Virus record (IMG/VR): IMGVR_UViG_3300034118_000632
Location: 1 to 32,875 of that record
Strand: one strand, 5' to 3'
DNA: 32,875 bases
Source of the DNA: a virus
The notes below the pieces were generated by a model that was given only the letters and a program-made list of their open reading frames with translations, was not told where the DNA came from and ran no database searches. The stretch's first letter is position 1; each line of letters starts with the position of its first letter. The translations under genes were made by a program, and so were the position numbers. This document shows, piece after piece, positions 6,057 through 23,245 of this stretch.

Positions 6057-6479
6057 ATGATTCGAGAACGATTGGTGAATGACTCGCTGCTGATCTCTCC
6101 GCGATCGCAAACGAACACGCAGACGAATACAGCAAATCTTGACACCAAGGGGGCAAACTACGCCACCATTCGTGTCGCGTTTGCCAGTGAGCTGAACACG
6201 AACGCCGTTGGGCCTACGCTTGTTCTGTCACATTCTGACGACACGGTAGTGACGAATTTTGCAACGCTTGACACACAAACAGGCTTGGATTTGACTGCCG
6301 CGCGTGAAGTGCATTACGGCGTCGACCTGCGAGGCAAAAAGCGATACCTGCGACTGGCCGTCACCACAGCAACTGCGACCAACGACAATGTCACGTTTGC
6401 CGCAGTGGCAACACTCAGCGACCTCGAGAATTCTCCGAACGGAACGACCAGTGTGGCTGACACGACAGTGTTTGTGTAA
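6057..6479 (+). CDS. Small structural protein, possible capsid decoration protein
   Basis: Unrecognised 140-aa protein encoded directly behind the major capsid gene, with a good Shine-Dalgarno (AAAGGGGAAA) before ATG 6057. The sequence is rich in Thr, Asn, Asp and beta-prone segments (VGPTLVLSHSDD, YLRLAVTTATATNDNVTFAAV) and has no cysteine, signal peptide or membrane segment. This pattern and position resemble small beta-rich decoration or head-fibre proteins of other phages, but no motif proves it. It may share an mRNA with the capsid gene through the weak hairpin at 6000-6022. Its stop overlaps the next start (TAATG). Confidence 0.5.
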   Translation: MIRERLVNDSLLISPRSQTNTQTNTANLDTKGANYATIRVAFASELNTNAVGPTLVLSHSDDTVVTNFATLDTQTGLDLTAAREVHYGVDLRGKKRYLRLAVTTATATNDNVTFAAVATLSDLENSPNGTTSVADTTVFV

Positions 6480-7069
6480 TGAGCGGAAGCACGATCAATT
6501 ACGAGGCTGTCGCACCTTGGATGCAAGGGAAAGCCTTTAACGTCTACACACAATTTGGTGAGGACGGATTGATCGCGTTTGCGCTTGATAAAATTGGACC
6601 GAAAAACCGTCACTGCTTTGAAATTGGAGCAGCTGACGGTCGGTTCTTTTCCAATACATTACGACTTCGCGAACTTGGCTGGTATGCGGTGCTGATTGAG
6701 GCCGACCAGCGGCACTTTAACAAACTGCAGGCTGAATTCGGGCAGCAGTCAGCGTGCATTTTCGGAACGTGCGGTGACCTGGATGACATGCTCATTCGAA
6801 CCACAATCAACCGCACGCCTGACCTCGGAATTATCGACATTGACGGACAGGACTATTGGCTTTGGCACGACATGGTTGAAATCAGGCCGCGAGTCATGCT
6901 CGTGGAAATCAGCACGCAGGGCCGATCAATGCCAGTTCCTTTGCGTGGCGAGCCATACCCGGCACAGGCCGGACTTGAACAAATAACGCAGCTTGGAGCC
7001 TCAAAAGGTTACACGCTCGTCGCAACAACTTACTGCAACGCTCTTTTTATAGAAAACTCATGTCTCTGA
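6479..7069 (+). CDS. FkbM-like SAM-dependent methyltransferase
   Basis: Probable class I methyltransferase of 196 aa. It shows an SAM-binding motif I (HCFEIGAADGRFFSNT, about residues 41-56), an acidic ribose-binding motif II (VLIEAD) and IIDIDGQDYWLW. The latter resembles the IDIDGNDYW motif in FkbM-related enzymes often encoded beside glycosyltransferases; these commonly O-methylate sugars. It is inserted between the capsid and connector genes, an unusual place for an enzyme, and overlaps the methyltransferase-glycosyltransferase gene by 10 bases, so the two are probably co-translated and act together. Substrate unknown: a virion glycan or a host surface sugar are the obvious options. Confidence 0.65.
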   Translation: MSGSTINYEAVAPWMQGKAFNVYTQFGEDGLIAFALDKIGPKNRHCFEIGAADGRFFSNTLRLRELGWYAVLIEADQRHFNKLQAEFGQQSACIFGTCGDLDDMLIRTTINRTPDLGIIDIDGQDYWLWHDMVEIRPRVMLVEISTQGRSMPVPLRGEPYPAQAGLEQITQLGASKGYTLVATTYCNALFIENSCL

Positions 7070-8187
7070 AACTGAACATCGGTGCTGGCTCAACTGTTAT
7101 TCCCGGATTCACCCCGATCGACCGCAAGTTCGGTTCGGAGGCGTTTCCGTTGCAGTACGCCGACAATTCCGTGGATGAGATCAGAGCCTCGCACATCCTC
7201 GAGCACTTCAGCTTTGCGGACGCCCAGGAAGCCCTAAAGGAATGGACGCGAGTTCTGAAGCCCGGCGGACGTATTCGGCTGGCGGTTCCAGACATTGAGG
7301 CGAAGGAAAAGGCAGATCCGGACGAGTGGCCATTTATTATCATGGGCGGACAAACTGACGACAACGACTTTCATAAATCAGCATGGAACGAAACACGCCT
7401 ACGGGCTCACATGGAGCACTTCGGACTGCAAAGCGTCAAGCGATGGGAATCGCCAAACACAGACACGGCGGCTCATCCATGCTCATTGAATTTAGAGGGC
7501 GTGAAGCCAGCGGCAGCCGCCAAGAAAGCATTGACCGTAAAAGTCGGTGCGTATTTGACTCTTCCGCGTTACGAAGCGGTCGCAGCCAGAACGATCATTG
7601 AGCAAGCTTTGAAGCCACATAAGATTGACCTCACGACAACGCAAGGCGTGTTCTGGGGCCAGTGTATGCAACGCATGTTTCAAGACGCTGTCGACAAAAA
7701 CATCGACTGGATTCTGTCACTGGATTCAGACAGCCTTTTTAATCAAAAGCATATTTCCGATTTGTTCGCGCTGTTTGCGGCGAATCCACAGATCGACGCT
7801 TTGGCAGCTTTGCAGTGTCGACGCGGCGGAAAGTATCCGCTGATGACGACTGGCACCGGCGTGCAGGATGAACACGTACAAGTCGACGGCCGGCCGATCA
7901 AGGCGACAACGGCTCATTTTGGCCTCACGCTCATTCGCGTCAATTCATTGCGTGATGTGAAGAAGCCATGGTTCTGGTCGCAGCATGATGAAAGCGGCAA
8001 CTGGTCAGATAACAAGCTCGATGATGATATTTGGTTCTGGCATCAGTGGCGACTGGCCGGCAAGACGATTTACGTGGCTCCTTCAGTGTCGATCGGGCAT
8101 CTAGAAGAAACAGTTGCGATGTTCGATTCAGACTTGCAACCCAAGCACATCTACGTGCATGAATGGCGAAAGGAAAACGGGCTGTGA
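7060..8187 (+). CDS. Methyltransferase-glycosyltransferase fusion protein
   Basis: Two-domain enzyme of 375 aa. Residues 1-145 form a class I methyltransferase: KLNIGAG (motif I), IDRKFGSEAFPL, ADNSVDEIRASHILEHF and LKPGGRIRLAVPDI. After a short Ala/Lys linker, residues about 155-375 look like a GT-A glycosyltransferase: VGAYLTLPRYEA, a DXD-type SLDSDSLF for metal and nucleotide-sugar binding, and a C-terminal LDDDIWFWHQW and GKTIYVAPSVSIGHLE. The methyltransferase core begins at residue 4, which supports the ATG at 7060 despite no clear Shine-Dalgarno. The fusion suggests coupled sugar transfer and methylation on one acceptor; the acceptor is not known. Confidence 0.7.
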   Translation: MSLKLNIGAGSTVIPGFTPIDRKFGSEAFPLQYADNSVDEIRASHILEHFSFADAQEALKEWTRVLKPGGRIRLAVPDIEAKEKADPDEWPFIIMGGQTDDNDFHKSAWNETRLRAHMEHFGLQSVKRWESPNTDTAAHPCSLNLEGVKPAAAAKKALTVKVGAYLTLPRYEAVAARTIIEQALKPHKIDLTTTQGVFWGQCMQRMFQDAVDKNIDWILSLDSDSLFNQKHISDLFALFAANPQIDALAALQCRRGGKYPLMTTGTGVQDEHVQVDGRPIKATTAHFGLTLIRVNSLRDVKKPWFWSQHDESGNWSDNKLDDDIWFWHQWRLAGKTIYVAPSVSIGHLEETVAMFDSDLQPKHIYVHEWRKENGL

Positions 8188-14787: not shown

Positions 14788-16014
14788 ATGCCATCACGCT
14801 ACCTTCGCAGATCGTCACCAGACAGGCTCAAGCCATGCTCAGAGCGAATGGTTGACGTTTGCGACATCGAAACGGCTGATGGCTGTTGTGGTGTGATTCC
14901 TTGCAAGCTTTGCATTGAATGGGAAACCTACGACGACGGCATCGCCTACGGTTCAGCGACATTCGCTGGCTCATCATGGACAGGCACGGTTGGCGGCCAT
15001 GCGTTTGTATCGTACTGGGAGAGGAATTACGAGACCGACGAATGCGAATATGTTGTTACTCTCGACGACGAGGAAGTGTACCGCGCGAACTGCTACGAGG
15101 GGGCAAGCTGCCGAGATCCGAGCGGCACGGTGGCAGTGGCAACGGCATATCTCGAAGGCACGTTGAGCTGGAGCAAGCACGAGCCACGAGAACTAGCGTT
15201 GATTGTTGATCCTGACACAGGCTGCAATGATTTCTTTTGCGGTGATTGCCGTTGCTCGTGTGATTGTCTTTGCGTAACGATTACGCCCTACAGCGGCGAT
15301 ATTGTCGCGGGTGAGATTTGCGATACGTCATATCATTGTGATCCGCCGGTCTGGGAAGGCACGGTCGGCTATTACGATCTGTCGATTGCGCTGGGCCGAG
15401 ACGATTACGGAAACTGCATTATCACCGTAACCTCGGACGGTGAGGAGCAAGAACCAGTTGCGGTGACCGGCTGTGCGGATTTGTCGGCGAGCGTCACGCT
15501 GCCAAATGGCGATCTGATTGAGGTTAGATGCAAGCAGTGTGACTGCGAAGAAATACCTCCCATAATCGGTGATTGCATTTGCGGCCGACCAATGGGTGAA
15601 ACGCTCAGGTTGCTTTGGTCATCTGGAAACGGTACGCATGGATCAGCAGCAAGAGAGTTTTTGCTGTATTATGGAATGCAGGACGAAGATGGGATCAGTT
15701 GCGAGCCGTGGTCGCCTAGTGCTTTTCCGGGATATCGCGGAAGCGTTTCAGGAACGTTTCCGTTGCCGATGGGTGGCACTCGGTCAGACACACTTGAAGT
15801 GATTCTAGTTTGCGAGTGTATCGGATGCACTTATTGCATATACTACCGGTGGCTGGAGGGCGACACGCCTACAACGTGGTATCAGCTCGCTTACACTGTG
15901 TCGAGTTGTGACTGCCCAGCGATATTAGACGTGATCGACGGGTTCACCTCTGGCAATCCATTCGGCTATCAGATTTCGGACGTTACGGTCTACGAACTGG
16001 AAAGCAACTGCTGA
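14788..16014 (+). CDS. Cysteine-rich repeat protein, candidate tail tip or receptor-binding protein
   Basis: Unrecognised 408-aa protein with 33 cysteines by my count (about 8%). Clusters include a C-rich knot near residue 150 (CNDFFCGDCRCSCDCLC), RCKQCDCEE, DCICGRP and VCECIGCTYC. Between them are beta-sandwich-like modules. Two show a matching pattern: SWTGTVGGHAFVS...CEYVVTLDDEE and VWEGTVGYYDLSI...CIITVTSDGEE, and a third more diverged unit follows (RLLWSSGNGTHG). So it is likely an internally repeated protein stabilised by metal or disulphide bonds. Position after the tape measure and tail-tip genes makes a host-contact role plausible. No secretion signal. The start ATG at 14788 has only a weak ribosome site. 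Confidence 0.55.
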   Translation: MPSRYLRRSSPDRLKPCSERMVDVCDIETADGCCGVIPCKLCIEWETYDDGIAYGSATFAGSSWTGTVGGHAFVSYWERNYETDECEYVVTLDDEEVYRANCYEGASCRDPSGTVAVATAYLEGTLSWSKHEPRELALIVDPDTGCNDFFCGDCRCSCDCLCVTITPYSGDIVAGEICDTSYHCDPPVWEGTVGYYDLSIALGRDDYGNCIITVTSDGEEQEPVAVTGCADLSASVTLPNGDLIEVRCKQCDCEEIPPIIGDCICGRPMGETLRLLWSSGNGTHGSAAREFLLYYGMQDEDGISCEPWSPSAFPGYRGSVSGTFPLPMGGTRSDTLEVILVCECIGCTYCIYYRWLEGDTPTTWYQLAYTVSSCDCPAILDVIDGFTSGNPFGYQISDVTVYELESNC

Positions 16015-16166
16015 TGTTACGACTGATCGGCGTTTTGTTTCTGGCTGTTGTCGCACAGTTTATTGTGCATGGATGGTCCGAGTTTGCGGCAGCCAGCGGA
16101 GATCATGCAGTGCAGTTATGGAAAAATGACCTCGCCCGATTAGCGGAGAAGGCTGGCCGTGAGTGA
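16014..16166 (+). CDS. Small membrane protein (50 aa), possible holin-like
   Basis: Short gene starting at ATG 16014 that overlaps the Cys-rich gene stop (TGATG) and runs to TGA 16166. The product begins MLRLIGVLFLAVVAQFIVHG, a hydrophobic segment of about 18 residues, then a polar helical part with Lys, Arg, Glu. It is a one-pass membrane or secreted protein. At this position in the genome such a protein could be a holin or spanin-like lysis factor, but there is no endolysin next to it, so I do not claim that. It overlaps the next gene by 8 bases. Confidence 0.5.
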   Translation: MLRLIGVLFLAVVAQFIVHGWSEFAAASGDHAVQLWKNDLARLAEKAGRE

Positions 16167-17406
16167 CTGTCAGTGCGAACTGTCTGGATTTTGCAGCGTG
16201 CGAAACGTCGCATTGAAGGTGACGCACCAGATGATTTGCCGGGAAAACAAGCCGCGAATTGACGCGATGCTGGCAGGTCAAAAGTGGGTCAATCCGCAGG
16301 CAAAGAAGGCTCCGCAGCGCAAGCCATGTAACACGGCGAAGCGTGGGCGATGCACCGACTGCTCCGACGCTGGCACACTCATGATGGCAGCGATTCAAGC
16401 TGACACGGGTCAGCCTGTTTCGTGCGGGAGTTGCAAGACCTACCTGTTGTCACTCAATCGCATGTCCGCACACGATCATGCGGCCATCGTCCAGAAACTC
16501 TACGCGGAAATCTCATGGCCTCCATCATGGCGAGCTAAACACGGTGATAAAGAAGGCCAGCGAAAACGGATCGGTGAAATCGTTTCGAGTGCTTTGGCAG
16601 TAGCCACGACGACTTGCGCAACGACGAGGCCAAAGCCAGCCCGCAGAGCAGTAGTACAAAAAAACATTCCGGCGGTCAGCAGGCAACCGCTGGCTCAGAT
16701 TACGCCAAGGCCATTCACTGAAAAGCCACGACTAACTCTGATTTTTCACTGCTGGCCGAATGGTGAAGGATGGAAGCGTCACGTTGATTATCTCCGGCCA
16801 GTCAGCGGAGTGTTCGACCGAAAGATAATGGGGGTCGCAACTGGGCCGGGCACGGCAACGCTGGCCGAAGTCCGGGCTGCGTTCGGAGACTCGTGGGAAT
16901 ACCTCGCAGTTAAGAACGACAAATCGCTGCGGGAGGTTGTGACCTATCGCACAATGCTGGAAATGGTGCGGTCAACAGACATAAACGATGTTACGTTTTG
17001 CTTGCACTCAAAGGGAGCACAAAGCCATACGGCTGCGAGTCGGCAAATCCAGTGGTGGACTGAGGCGATGTATTCGACAGTTGTCCACAACTGGCAGAAC
17101 GTGCTCAGCAAAATGGAGCAAGGCTATCCCGTAGTGGGTTCGTTTTTGCGAGTCGGTAAACACCTGCAGGCCCGCTATGGCTGGCATTTTTCAGGGACGT
17201 TCTACGCATTTCGAAATGCCGTAGCGTTTCAAAATGGCGCGCCTGGCTTTGCCAGTAACTTCTACGGCACGGAATCATGGCCGGGGCATCATTTCGCGAG
17301 GCATGAAGCAGCCTGCATGTTTGCTGAAAACTGCGGAGACATCTACAAAGAAAACCCGCAATTGGAATTGGAACTTAACGAGTGGAGACGACTGAATGAA
17401 ACTTGA
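16159..17406 (+). CDS. Cys-rich zinc-binding-like domain plus glycosyltransferase-like domain
   Basis: Unusual 415-aa two-part protein. Residues 1-105 hold about ten cysteines: C4, C6, C12, C27, then PCNTAKRGRCTDC and SCGSCKTYLLSLN; this looks like one or more zinc-binding modules. After a Pro/Arg/Lys-rich linker (about 145-190), residues 190-410 resemble a glycan-related transferase: LTLIFHCWPNGEGWKRH, FCLHSKGAQSH, WWTEAMYSTVVHNW, and YGTESWPGHHFARHEA. The C-terminal half reads like rhamnan-synthesis/GT-type enzymes seen in other bacterial surface loci, but I cannot name a family. GTG start at 16159. It is followed by methyltransferase and dioxygenase genes, suggesting a modification cassette. 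Confidence 0.5.
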   Translation: MSDCQCELSGFCSVRNVALKVTHQMICRENKPRIDAMLAGQKWVNPQAKKAPQRKPCNTAKRGRCTDCSDAGTLMMAAIQADTGQPVSCGSCKTYLLSLNRMSAHDHAAIVQKLYAEISWPPSWRAKHGDKEGQRKRIGEIVSSALAVATTTCATTRPKPARRAVVQKNIPAVSRQPLAQITPRPFTEKPRLTLIFHCWPNGEGWKRHVDYLRPVSGVFDRKIMGVATGPGTATLAEVRAAFGDSWEYLAVKNDKSLREVVTYRTMLEMVRSTDINDVTFCLHSKGAQSHTAASRQIQWWTEAMYSTVVHNWQNVLSKMEQGYPVVGSFLRVGKHLQARYGWHFSGTFYAFRNAVAFQNGAPGFASNFYGTESWPGHHFARHEAACMFAENCGDIYKENPQLELELNEWRRLNET

Positions 17407-17923
17407 AATCGGCGGCGGAAATGATTTTGCGAGAGGCGACGGTTGGACCAACATGGACCAACTGCCGGGGGCGGACATTCAGCACGATCTGAACGTAAGA
17501 CCGTGGCCACTGTCCGACGACAGCGTTGACGCAATTTACACGTCGCATTGCATTGAGCACGTTCAATGCCCGATCAGCTTTCTGCATGAGTGTGCTCGAA
17601 TCGGCAAGGTCGGATGCACGGTTGAAATCCGTTGTCCAAGTCCTTATTCAGACCTCGCAATGGTCGCGGGGCACGTGTCCGTTTTTTCTCCGCAAGCCGC
17701 GCGAAACATGGACGTGCATTTTCCGAGACTATTTTGGAAAGACAAGAAACGCCCTCGGCTTGTGTCCTGGCATTTCGGAGCAAATGAGCGTCTGCATGAG
17801 GCGAAGCAGGAGCTGCCGTTTCTCAAGGGCCTCTCCGATCACCTGATCATGAAATACATTCCGGGTTGTGCTCACGAAACAGTTTTTCAGTACGTCATTC
17901 AGGCCAATGAATATGCCAGCTAA
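17396..17923 (+). CDS. SAM-dependent methyltransferase, type 11-like
   Basis: Class I methyltransferase of 175 aa: KLEIGGGNDF at the N-terminus (motif I), WTNMDQLPGADIQHDL (acidic residue for SAM), LSDDSVDAIYTSHCIEHV (post-motif) and a C-terminal region VEIRCPSPYSDLA, MDVHFPRLFW. The enzyme core begins at residue 2, supporting the ATG start at 17396, which overlaps the preceding gene by 11 bases. It resembles the N-terminal domain of the 7060-8187 fusion in motif order. A partner for the GT-like protein is likely; target unknown. Confidence 0.7.
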   Translation: MKLEIGGGNDFARGDGWTNMDQLPGADIQHDLNVRPWPLSDDSVDAIYTSHCIEHVQCPISFLHECARIGKVGCTVEIRCPSPYSDLAMVAGHVSVFSPQAARNMDVHFPRLFWKDKKRPRLVSWHFGANERLHEAKQELPFLKGLSDHLIMKYIPGCAHETVFQYVIQANEYAS

Positions 17924-18470
17924 GGTGATCGAAAACGTAATTCCTCGTTCGCTTGTCCTCGCCGCTGAGGCGGCATGGCCATCGCCTGAATGGCCCTATT
18001 GGCACCGCTACAACGGAGCGACCGCAAACAAATACGGATCAATGGATCGCAGCCGAATTCCTCCAGCCTGCATTGCGGCTCTCGATGCGCTGGCGTTGGC
18101 GGTCGCAGATCAAATCGGGGATTCCTTTATCGACTACGATCTGCACGCGGCTGGAATGCACATGATGCCTCCAGGTGGATTTCTCGGAAGACATCTTGAC
18201 GCTGAGTGTCACCCGATCAGGCCGTGGAAAAGAACTCACTCGATCGTGCTGTCGCTGAACGAAACCATGGGCGGCAATCTCATCCTTGAGGGCATCGGCA
18301 AGTTTTCACCGGAGCCAGGGAGAGTAATTGTGTTCGAGACGGCTAGCCAGTGGCATGAGGTCACGCAAGTAGCGGCTGACTCGCAGTGGCGCAAAACGCT
18401 GGCCCTGTTCGCATGGCAGATTGACCACAATTGCGACGGCAGGACATCTGCGAACTTTCAGAAGTCATAG
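17907..18470 (+). CDS. 2-oxoglutarate/Fe(II)-dependent dioxygenase
   Basis: Probable prolyl-hydroxylase-like oxygenase, 187 aa from ATG 17907. It has the iron ligands H96-x-D98 (GRHLDAE), distal H150 (QWHEV), and R162 (WRKTLALFAW) for 2-oxoglutarate, in the right order and spacing for the double-stranded beta-helix fold; THSIVLSLN, GGNLILEGIG and EPGRVIVFETAS are strands of that core. Such enzymes hydroxylate protein side chains, sugars or nucleic-acid bases. The start overlaps the methyltransferase gene end by 17 bases (ATG 17913 is an alternative). Location next to transferases suggests it creates the acceptor hydroxyl; that is inference. Confidence 0.75.
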   Translation: MNMPAKVIENVIPRSLVLAAEAAWPSPEWPYWHRYNGATANKYGSMDRSRIPPACIAALDALALAVADQIGDSFIDYDLHAAGMHMMPPGGFLGRHLDAECHPIRPWKRTHSIVLSLNETMGGNLILEGIGKFSPEPGRVIVFETASQWHEVTQVAADSQWRKTLALFAWQIDHNCDGRTSANFQKS

Positions 18471-20267: not shown

Positions 20268-20459
20268 GGCAGATCGTTTTTGTCCGGCCCGCTGTCAACG
20301 GCGGCGGGCGAATCTGCCTCAGAGCCTGCTGCATTGAAAAATGATTTTCAACGGCTGGCCCCCGCAAGCCAATGAAGGCGCGGCAGGCTCTGAATTTGTT
20401 ATCCCTGTGAACAGTCCGCCAGCGGTGGCGTTTACGGTCGTCAATGGCTGTTCACAGGG
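20268..20459 (+). repeat. Three tandem palindromes upstream of csrA
   Basis: Palindrome 1: 20268-20274 with 20312-20318 (7 bp), inside it GCCCGC 20287-20292 with GCGGGC 20304-20309. Palindrome 2: 20320-20329 with 20383-20392, a perfect 10 bp, inside it TTGAAAA/TTTTCAA near 20334-20350. Palindrome 3: 20403-20414 with 20448-20459, a perfect 12 bp, followed by a T5 tract 20462-20466, so it looks like a terminator, or an attenuator before the CsrA gene. The 258-base gap 20230-20487 holds no convincing gene. Confidence 0.6.
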
Positions 20460-20487
20460 TGTTTTTCTCTCAATGAAAGGACTTCAA

Positions 20488-20757
20488 ATGCTAGTGCTCA
20501 GACGGGCTGTTTCGGAAGAGATCATTATCACGGTCGGCGAAGAAACGATCGTCGTCAAGCTGGTTGACACAATCGGAACTAATCACGCACGGCTCGGCTT
20601 CACCGCATCAAAGAACGTGCGGATTGATCGCAAGGAAATTCACGACGCCATTCAGGAAACTGGCTTTAACCCGGAGGCGTTTCCAATCGCTCCGCTCGTG
20701 CCAGTGATTCGAATCGGCGATCGTCTTCCGGGCGAACTCATGCGGAGGAAAGTGTAA
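20488..20757 (+). CDS. csrA: CsrA-family RNA-binding regulator
   Basis: RNA-binding protein that normally represses or activates translation by binding GGA motifs near ribosome sites. The 89-aa protein shows MLVLRRAVSEEIIITV at the start, the VxLVDTIGTNHARLGFTA core and NVRIDRKEIHDAI, the signature of CsrA, including the conserved R6 and the R of DRKEI (R48) that contact RNA. A family member is usually about 60 residues; here a 35-residue extension follows. ATG 20488 has AAGGA (20476-20480), which is itself a CsrA-type GGA site, so autoregulation is possible. An open frame continuing upstream through the palindromes is rejected as a longer start. Confidence 0.85.
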   Translation: MLVLRRAVSEEIIITVGEETIVVKLVDTIGTNHARLGFTASKNVRIDRKEIHDAIQETGFNPEAFPIAPLVPVIRIGDRLPGELMRRKV

Positions 20758-21810: not shown

Positions 21811-22697
21811 TTGACGCAGCAAAGAATGGATCACGAATCAGCGCGGCGTTTGCGATGGCAGAGGCTCGCATTCAGTTAATCGAATCGCTGACCGATGAGA
21901 ACATCAAGGCCCGTCTGCTGCGAATGACGGACCCGAGAATTAACATGGTTGAACTCGCCAACAATCCAACCGACGAGGACCGGATTAGAGTTTGTGCGAT
22001 TGCCATTTTGAGTGGCTTCTGCCCCGGTGATGATCAGTTTGCCGTGTTCGGCGGCAAGGGCGGCGGAAAGCTCTACACGAAGGAAGCGGGTTTCCGAACG
22101 CTGTTTGCTCACCTTGGAATCGTTCCAGAGGTTTCGGTTGGGCATCCTGAGTTCGTGCCGCTTGGAAAGTCAGGAAAGAAAATCTGGCGAGTCGAAGGAA
22201 GGGCGTCTTGCTCCTACGGCGGCAAGGAATACGCGGTCGAGTTCTCTGGGGCGATGGCCTTGGGCCTTCCGGGCTATGAGTCGGACAATGTGGCGGGAAT
22301 CACTGCTAAGGGCCGTAGGCAGCTTCTGAAGGCTTTGTGGACGAAGGTCTCACCGATTCTGAATGATGACCAGGCGGACGAAGTGGAAGTTATGCCGCAG
22401 ACGATGCTGATTGAGGAGCCTCGACAGCCAGTGGCGGTCGAGCCTGAGCCATCGGAAACCGAAAAGCACGAGCCATCGCTCGCACGCATCCGGAAGATCC
22501 TCAGTGACAATCCGGACCAGCTCACGTTCGTTGAGTCGGTTTGGAATGAGATCGCAGCGGCAAGGACCCATGAGAAGCTGGAAGAGGCTGGTAAGGAATT
22601 GGCAGCGATGAAAGCCAGCGTGAGCAGTCAGGTGCTGTCACTGGTGCGGCCATACTATCAGGCTCGGCAGGCGGAGCTGAAAGGCGGTGCGGCATGA
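21735..22697 (+). CDS. Putative phage recombination (RecT-like?) protein
   Basis: A 320-aa protein of which residues 85-215 resemble phage annealing-type proteins: DQFAVFGGKGGGKLYTKEAGFRTLF, then HPEFVPLGKSGKKIWRVEGRASCSYGGKEYAVEF and a helical DNVAGITAKGRRQLLKALWTKVSP. The pattern of a strand-rich core with a K-x-Y-T-K-E-A/G motif is like that in RecT-type or similar single-strand annealing proteins, but I cannot name a family firmly. The C-terminal 100 residues are acidic and helical, as in SSB-interacting tails. Neighbours (RusA, Sak4-like ATPase, DUF669) support a recombination role. Confidence 0.45.
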   Translation: MGTITTTTNTVGDWLTRIDASRNELIDAAKNGSRISAAFAMAEARIQLIESLTDENIKARLLRMTDPRINMVELANNPTDEDRIRVCAIAILSGFCPGDDQFAVFGGKGGGKLYTKEAGFRTLFAHLGIVPEVSVGHPEFVPLGKSGKKIWRVEGRASCSYGGKEYAVEFSGAMALGLPGYESDNVAGITAKGRRQLLKALWTKVSPILNDDQADEVEVMPQTMLIEEPRQPVAVEPEPSETEKHEPSLARIRKILSDNPDQLTFVESVWNEIAAARTHEKLEEAGKELAAMKASVSSQVLSLVRPYYQARQAELKGGAA

Positions 22698-23245
22698 GTC
22701 GGCCATCATGGATGTTGCCGGAGATTCAGTCAATAGCGGAATTCCCCGCAGAACAGATCGCACGGCAACTTGGAAAGCTCTGCCGATACGCCGGAGCAAC
22801 GCCAGATCATTACAGCGTGGCTCGGCATTCTTTGGTTGTTGCGGCATTGGCTCCTGACGATCCAGAACACAAGATGGCGGCGTTGTTGCACGATGCACAT
22901 GAGGCATTGACTGGCGACATCCTGCGACCGATGACGCGGCTTCTTAGCATGTCCTCGCGAATGGAGATCCTCTGCGAGCAACAAGCCATTGACAGGCAGT
23001 TGTATTTACTGATTGGATTCGATCCGTCAATCGCTGTGCTAAACGCGGTCAGCACTGCCGACGACACGGCCTGCAAGCTGGAGATGCAGTTGCTGGGCAA
23101 GTCATCCAGCGAGATCACGGACGCACTGCCAAATCTCAGGGAAGCAGCTTGGCAGTTGGCGTTTCACGGAAACGCACAGATTGACGCGATGCACTGGCTA
23201 GTGTCGTTCAATGAAACACTGAAAACGCTGGAGGCCATGCGATGA
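22694..23245 (+). CDS. HD-domain phosphohydrolase (YfbR-like)
   Basis: Likely nucleotide phosphohydrolase acting on dNMPs. The 183-aa protein has the HD-domain ligands H45 (SVARHSLVVA), H66-D67 (ALLHDAHEALTGD) and D123/D124 (STADDTACKLE), in the order of YfbR-type 5'-nucleotidases, which often occur in phage genomes. They may remove unwanted nucleotides or shape the dNTP pool. The start overlaps the previous gene by ATGA and the stop overlaps the next gene. Confidence 0.85.
   Translation: MSRPSWMLPEIQSIAEFPAEQIARQLGKLCRYAGATPDHYSVARHSLVVAALAPDDPEHKMAALLHDAHEALTGDILRPMTRLLSMSSRMEILCEQQAIDRQLYLLIGFDPSIAVLNAVSTADDTACKLEMQLLGKSSSEITDALPNLREAAWQLAFHGNAQIDAMHWLVSFNETLKTLEAMR

What the first reader, a model, noticed from the sequence alone, without database searches (positions are those of the whole stretch)
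16159..18470. Second cassette: zinc-domain GT-like protein, methyltransferase and 2OG dioxygenase
Three overlapping genes encode a Cys-rich protein with a GT-like domain, a methyltransferase and an Fe(II)/2-oxoglutarate dioxygenase with a complete H-D-H-R set. Together with the head-module enzymes the phage carries hydroxylation, glycosyl-transfer and methylation activities, split across two operon positions. A plausible system is hydroxylation of a side chain, glycosylation of the hydroxyl, then O-methylation of the sugar. A DNA-base role seems less likely because no thymidylate-synthase-like, kinase or other base-hypermodification genes are seen.
Basis: inference. Interest (0 to 1): 0.85.

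Follow-up and report, generated by a model that had tools for sequence, protein, structure and literature searches.

The report
Phage hydroxylase–glycosyltransferase–methyltransferase cassette
A bacterial virus, probably of planctomycetes, carries three overlapping genes (a sugar-transfer enzyme of an unnamed family, a methyltransferase and a prolyl-hydroxylase-like oxygenase) that recur together in many distant phages beside a cysteine-rich tail-region protein, which suggests that these phages chemically decorate their own particles.

Summary
At 16159-18470 three overlapping late genes encode (1) a Cys-rich N-terminus plus a GT-A-fold domain that no Pfam model matches, (2) a class I SAM methyltransferase, and (3) an Fe(II)/2OG oxygenase with H-D-H-R invariant in 30/30 relatives. 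It is more than chance. Among 37 independent GT loci found by the GT domain alone, 18 have this oxygenase within 2.5 kb downstream, and all 18 oxygenase hits in 505 kb fall in that zone. The GT→MT→oxygenase order recurs in four other phage contigs and in a phage-like contig of an Elusimicrobia bin. The gene before the GT is Cys-rich in 45/59 loci (background 16%). The oxygenase resembles prolyl hydroxylases, not TET/AlkB. No thymidylate-synthase-type gene was found in the relatives, and the window has no C5-methylase, so DNA modification is unlikely. Best reading: a late, mosaic cassette that decorates a phage tail-region protein, with hydroxylation, glycosylation and methyl capping. The acceptor is unproven; no oxygenase-linked residue was found in the Cys-rich protein.

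The parts
14788..16014 (+). Cys-rich (8.1% Cys) protein, 408 aa, end of tail module; candidate acceptor or partner
   Evidence: Homologous Cys-rich protein just upstream of the GT in the close family; Cys-rich upstream ORF in 45/59 GT loci against 16% of background neighbour pairs. No acceptor residue identified.
16014..16166 (+). 50-aa ORF with hydrophobic N-terminus; its stop overlaps the start of the GT gene
   Evidence: Sequence; conserved in L007 and L010. Role unknown.
16159..16650 (+). N-terminal Cys-rich part of the GT protein (about residues 1-164): a C-x-C-x5-C module and a helical module with CGSC
   Evidence: Found on other catalytic halves: a phosphoribosyltransferase domain (L009), GT2 (L003), Rhamno_transf (L011); helical part 71-149 well modelled, residues 1-60 poorly. 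Zinc binding not shown.
16690..17406 (+). GT-A-fold glycosyltransferase domain without DxD; H-x-K-G at the end of strand 4 instead
   Evidence: AlphaFold and Foldseek; H283/K285/G286 at least 90% conserved in 67 relatives; no Pfam family.
17396..17923 (+). Class I SAM methyltransferase
   Evidence: Methyltransf_11 E 1.5e-5; motif E-I/L-G-G-G and D21, H51, E54, H55 conserved in relatives.
17868..18470 (+). Fe(II)/2-oxoglutarate oxygenase of prolyl-hydroxylase type (start more likely 17907 or 17913)
   Evidence: 2OG-FeII_Oxy_3 E 2.4e-9; H-D-H-R invariant 30/30; AlphaFold pLDDT 93.7; top Foldseek hits are prolyl hydroxylases; profile hits in PDB.

Best explanation
The three genes are a late-expressed glycan-decoration cassette acting on a protein of the phage's own particle, most likely the Cys-rich tail-region protein encoded just upstream. 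The oxygenase, of the prolyl-hydroxylase type, creates a hydroxyl on a side chain (proline is the best guess); the GT-A enzyme, lacking the metal-binding DxD motif, adds a sugar there or extends a glycan; the methyltransferase caps the sugar. The Cys-rich N-terminal module of the GT protein is a swappable docking part. Shown here: enzyme families and folds, conserved catalytic residues, the recurrent GT-oxygenase(-methyltransferase) linkage, and the Cys-rich neighbour. Inferred: acceptor, sugar, order of steps and purpose (altered adsorption, or shielding from recognition).
For: GT-oxygenase linkage: 18/37 GT-only-selected loci, all 18 oxygenase hits downstream within 2.5 kb (binomial 5e-14); all complete oxygenase-selected loci carry the GT upstream. 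The same order GT-MT-oxygenase is in L039, L048, L050, L060 and in L088, a contig of an Elusimicrobia bin with connector, tail and terminase genes. Methyltransferases and 2OG-FeII_Oxy_3 are the two commonest Pfam groups among downstream neighbours. Cys-rich upstream protein in 45/59 loci, 22/25 of those with the oxygenase. Oxygenase closest to PPHD, HIF-PHD, Dictyostelium PHD and PBCV-1 vCPH by structure and to PolD, PPHD, OGFOD1 and HIF-PH by profile. Genes are in the late structural operon, overlapping and co-oriented. Co-inheritance by distance correlation. Hydroxylation followed by glycosylation is known elsewhere: Dictyostelium Skp1 (PMC3515798) and mimivirus L230 (PMC9614988).
Against: No proline, lysine or other residue of the Cys-rich protein tracks the oxygenase. 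Cys-rich neighbours are also common without the oxygenase (23/34). No collagen-like repeats were found. Distant planctomycete homologues of the oxygenase lie in polysaccharide gene clusters, so the substrate could be a glycan. The best profile hit, PolD, is described only as a putative hydroxylase and may act on a small molecule. That the Cys-rich protein is in the virion is inferred from its position only.
Confidence: 0.45

Rival explanations
1. The cassette modifies a glycan rather than a protein side chain: the GT and methyltransferase build or cap a host surface polysaccharide or nucleotide-linked glycan and the oxygenase oxidises the sugar, altering the receptor or excluding other phages.
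For: Distant oxygenase homologues in planctomycete genomes lie among GT, sulfotransferase-like and sugar-biosynthesis genes (L132, L135, L137, L138; gene roles there read by eye). Cellular relatives of the GT domain lie near Wzy_C, epimerase and heptosyltransferase genes.
Against: The phage enzymes are in the late tail operon beside a Cys-rich tail-region protein; nothing like a Gtr flippase was seen in the cassette; the oxygenase is nearest to prolyl hydroxylases.
Confidence: 0.22
2. The three genes are independent morons that collect at a permissive site after the tail module, without a shared pathway.
For: The site is highly mosaic: many GT, methyltransferase, phosphoribosyltransferase and cytidylyltransferase genes occur there in different combinations; GT and oxygenase distances are uncorrelated in the close family.
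Against: 18/18 placement of the oxygenase after the GT; the same order in distant phages; Mantel r=0.62 in the distant subset and r=0.80 for MT-oxygenase.
Confidence: 0.17
3. The oxygenase hydroxylates a host protein, for example elongation factor Tu, with which its nearest structural relative PPHD was crystallised, as part of host takeover.
For: PPHD, crystallised with EF-Tu, is the top PDB hit at 24-25% identity.
Against: Late operon position and constant linkage to a GT are not explained; PPHD is only a distant relative.
Confidence: 0.07
4. The cassette hypermodifies phage DNA: a TET/JBP-like oxygenase makes hydroxymethylcytosine and the GT glycosylates it.
For: Oxygenase + GT + methyltransferase sets also occur in phage DNA hypermodification (from my own knowledge, not tested here); the window has a dNMP-phosphatase-like gene.
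Against: Tet_JBP match not significant (E 0.055, 13.1 bits against cut-off 34.9); no TET or AlkB in the 50 best fold hits or in profile hits at E<=0.01; no thymidylate synthase family in 20 relatives; C5-methylase absent from the window and present in only 2 of 14 relatives tested; late tail-operon position.
Confidence: 0.06

Closest known systems
Pseudomonas putida prolyl hydroxylase PPHD and the HIF-PHD / P4H family (PDB 4iw3, 4j25, 6t8m, 5c5t)
   Same: DSBH fold, HxD...H + R, best structural and profile similarity
   Different: 24-25% identity or less; phage-encoded; linked to a GT; substrate unknown
Phage 2OG-Fe(II) oxygenases of PHROG 61, widespread and EGLN3-like (PMC12774648)
   Same: phage origin, PHD-like fold, weak PHROG 61 match (E 3.7e-6)
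   Different: no tblastn match to this protein in 50,697 phage records; here tied to GT and MT genes; PHROG 61 functions are unassigned
Dictyostelium/Toxoplasma Skp1 prolyl-hydroxylation and glycosylation pathway (PMC3515798)
   Same: cytoplasmic PHD-type enzyme followed by glycosyltransferases on hydroxyproline; logic of the proposed mechanism
   Different: eukaryotic, cellular protein substrate, no methyl cap known to me; no GT homology shown
Mimivirus L230 lysyl hydroxylase-glucosyltransferase (PMC9614988)
   Same: virus-encoded hydroxylation then glycosylation of a virus-encoded protein
   Different: fused, lysine in collagen repeats; here separate genes and no collagen repeats
Chlorovirus PBCV-1 A064R and A061L (PMC9614988)
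   Same: virus-encoded GT + methyltransferase making a methylated virion glycan; A064R domain 2 is a cation-independent rhamnosyltransferase of a new family with a planctomycete homologue; L020 here has a tag-GT-GT-methyltransferase-like fusion; Foldseek hit M1IF74 has the length of A064R (638 aa)
   Different: no oxygenase; homology to domain 2 is a lead, not tested by sequence; identity of M1IF74 not confirmed

Membership tests
2OG-Fe(II) oxygenase, prolyl-hydroxylase type | HxD...H iron triad and Arg binding 2-oxoglutarate on a DSBH fold | tested here: met
   H109, D111, H163, R175 invariant in 30 relatives; model pLDDT 93.7 with PHD folds as top hits
2OG-Fe(II) oxygenase, prolyl-hydroxylase type | sequence-profile similarity to known prolyl hydroxylases | tested here: met
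   PPHD 1.7e-11, OGFOD1 2.9e-10, HIF-PH 1.9e-8, but PolD 1.9e-12 scores best
2OG-Fe(II) oxygenase, prolyl-hydroxylase type | hydroxylates a peptidyl proline | not testable with these tools
   needs enzyme assay or virion proteomics
TET/JBP DNA dioxygenase | significant Tet_JBP profile match | tested here: not met
   E 0.055, 13.1 bits against cut-off 34.9
TET/JBP DNA dioxygenase | partner C5-cytosine methyltransferase | tested here: not met
   none in window; 2 of 14 relatives tested
GT-A glycosyltransferase | GT-A fold | tested here: met
   GlcAT-P 2.5e-5, GPGS 3e-4; IspD/TarI nucleotidyltransferases of similar fold also hit
GT-A glycosyltransferase | DxD metal-binding motif after strand 4 | tested here: not met
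   HxKG occupies that place, conserved in at least 90% of 67 relatives; some known GT-A enzymes also lack DxD, so this does not exclude the fold class
GT-A glycosyltransferase | match to a described Pfam or NCBIfam family | tested here: not met
   no GT family in any of 67 members; NCBIfam none
PBCV-1 A064R domain 2 rhamnosyltransferase family | sequence homology to A064R-D2 | tested here: inconclusive
   structural hits to unnamed viral proteins M1HWA2 and M1IF74; A064R sequence not available here
Class I SAM methyltransferase | motif I and Methyltransf profile above cut-off | tested here: met
   Methyltransf_11 26 bits against 21.2; EIGGG motif conserved
Viral hydroxylation-glycosylation enzyme (L230 type) | collagen-like Gly-X-Y acceptor encoded nearby | tested here: not met
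   no Gly-X-Y runs found in window or loci
Skp1-type hydroxyproline glycosylation | glycan on hydroxyproline | not testable with these tools
   needs mass spectrometry

The most novel reading that the evidence does not exclude
A phage-encoded hydroxyproline-O-glycosylation pathway: a PHD-type hydroxylase, a metal-independent GT of a family unnamed in Pfam (possibly akin to the chlorovirus A064R domain 2 rhamnosyltransferase) and a sugar O-methyltransferase jointly decorate a Cys-rich tail protein, across phages of several bacterial phyla.
Probability: 0.22. Interest if true: 0.85.

Novelty: new variant of a known kind. Interest (0 to 1): 0.62.

Why it matters
Hydroxylation-dependent glycosylation of proteins is known in eukaryotes and giant viruses; I found no report of it for a bacteriophage in the open-access papers searched. 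The cassette gives a concrete gene set, a candidate acceptor and a recurrent genomic context. It would also assign a role to one lineage of the PHD-like oxygenases that are widespread in phages without a function, and define a glycosyltransferase domain family that curated libraries miss.

Tried and rejected
DNA hypermodification: tested and disfavoured. Joint pathway with the head-module MT-GT: not supported. Acceptor residue in the Cys-rich protein by comparing 11 oxygenase-positive with 11 oxygenase-negative homologues: no column found. Collagen-like acceptor: none. Phage reference collection: no match for GT or oxygenase, only weak partial matches for the methyltransferase. PDB sequence search with the GT profile: only chance hits. 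Sequence test against chlorovirus A064R: sequence not available here, not written from memory. NCLDV capsid search in GT-bearing large contigs: nothing, and the controls were silent, so uninformative. Host by prophage: planctomycete terminase matches reach 42-43% identity against 36% in Pseudomonadota, but the four integrated examples examined show no cassette.

Full report
Observation. Three overlapping + strand ORFs lie at 16159-17406, 17396-17923 and 17868-18470, directly after a Cys-rich 408-aa protein (14788-16014) and a 50-aa ORF, at the end of the head-tail operon. The window is an IMG/VR virus record. Pfam names the second protein a methyltransferase (E 1.5e-5) and the third a 2OG-Fe(II) oxygenase (2.4e-9), both above cut-off; the first has no significant family. 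The oxygenase start is probably 17907 or 17913 rather than GTG 17868, judged from homologue L015.

Enzymes. In 30 oxygenase relatives H109, D111, H163 and R175 never vary. The model (pLDDT 93.7) matches P. putida prolyl hydroxylase PPHD best (E 1.1e-8), followed by HIF prolyl hydroxylases, the Dictyostelium PHD, chlorovirus vCPH and OGFOD1, with a few others such as PolD among them. The profile search of PDB sequences gives PolD, PPHD, OGFOD1, HIF-PH and P4H, and no TET or AlkB. The first protein's C-terminal half is modelled with high confidence as a GT-A fold. None of 67 relatives matches a Pfam glycosyltransferase, and the usual DxD position holds a conserved H-x-K-G. That the site is metal-independent is an inference. 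The methyltransferase has the E-I/L-G-G-G motif and conserved D21, H51, E54 and H55.

More than chance. The GT domain was used alone to collect loci from viral and cellular contigs. Of 51 dereplicated loci, 37 have at least 2.5 kb downstream; 18 of these have the oxygenase there on the same strand, and no oxygenase hit in their 505 kb lies elsewhere (binomial 5e-14). Nine carry this methyltransferase type, seven carry both. The order GT-MT-oxygenase recurs in L039, L048, L050, L060 and in L088, a contig of an Elusimicrobia bin with phage connector, tail and terminase genes. Methyltransferases (15 of 97 ORFs by the commonest model) and 2OG oxygenases (13) are the commonest downstream Pfam groups. 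Distance matrices correlate (GT-oxygenase r=0.33, p=3e-4; MT-oxygenase r=0.80, p=2e-4), although not within the close family, where mosaic exchange is evident. These correlations do not control for the shared descent of whole phages.

Partner. One of the two ORFs before the GT is Cys-rich (at least 4% Cys) in 45 of 59 loci, against 16% of background neighbour pairs. This includes many phages whose Cys-rich protein shows no sequence similarity to the window's. It is therefore the best candidate for acceptor or partner. But it is also present without the oxygenase (23/34), and no residue in it tracks the oxygenase.

Module swapping. The N-terminal Cys-rich part of the GT protein is shared with proteins whose other halves are a phosphoribosyltransferase domain, GT2 or Rhamno_transf domains, and similar modules appear as stand-alone ORFs (L015 7072-7536, L037 6207-6713). 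I read it as a docking module. Zinc binding is not shown.

Interpretation. Late operon position, linkage to a GT, a PHD-type oxygenase and a Cys-rich tail-region neighbour favour decoration of the phage's own particle. Comparable logic is documented for Skp1 (hydroxyproline then five sugars; PMC3515798), for mimivirus L230 (hydroxylysine glucosylation of a viral collagen-like protein; PMC9614988) and for chlorovirus A064R/A061L (rhamnosylation then methylation of the capsid glycan; PMC9614988). A064R domain 2 is described there as a cation-independent rhamnosyltransferase of a new family with a homologue in the planctomycete Lacipirellula parvula. Two Foldseek hits, one of 638 aa like A064R, make a relation plausible, but it was not tested by sequence. 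PHD-like oxygenases are widespread in phages without assigned function (PMC12774648).

Against DNA modification: Tet_JBP is not significant; no thymidylate synthase family in 20 relatives; C5-methylase absent from the window and in only 2 of 14 relatives. A dNMP-phosphatase-like gene at 22694-23245 is the only hint the other way. Many of the relatives are fragments, so absence is not proof.

Host. Planctomycetota are the largest group among cellular contigs with the GT domain (7 of 15), and terminase matches are best in the phylum of locus L089 (Schlesneria; 42-43% identity against 36% in a sample of the phylum of Aquabacterium). A planctomycete host is likely, not shown.

Verdict. A real, recurrent enzyme cassette, of known kinds of enzymes but in a combination and context for which I found no description in phages. 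The mechanism is plausible and unproven.

Noticed in passing
L009 8001-9416; L003 8001-9971; L011 7983-10637: The Cys-rich N-terminal module of the GT protein is fused to unrelated catalytic halves (phosphoribosyltransferase, GT2, Rhamno_transf), as in a swappable docking tag.
   Followed up: partly
L015 7072-7536 and L037 6207-6713: Stand-alone ORFs that consist only of the Cys-rich tag-like modules, next to tagged GT genes.
   Followed up: no
L020 5410-8004: 864-aa protein with tag + GT + GT + methyltransferase-like part, an arrangement like chlorovirus A064R.
   Followed up: partly
window 20341-20757: CsrA domain (Pfam E 1.5e-10) encoded in the phage early region.
   Followed up: no
window 22694-23245: Deoxynucleoside monophosphate phosphatase-like gene (PHROG 318, E 2e-26), near ParB-like and SSB-like genes.
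   Followed up: no
window 6479-8187: Head module holds a second methyltransferase-GT2 fusion (7060-8187), 99-100% identical in phages that lack the oxygenase, and an ORF with a SAM-like FEIGAADG motif (6479-7069) without Pfam match.
   Followed up: partly
L132, L135, L137, L138: Longer relatives of the oxygenase in planctomycete genomes lie in what look like polysaccharide biosynthesis clusters.
   Followed up: partly
L011 11429-11950: Cytidylyltransferase-like gene (CTP_transf_like E 1.8e-18) in the same cassette position, suggesting phage-made activated precursors.
   Followed up: no
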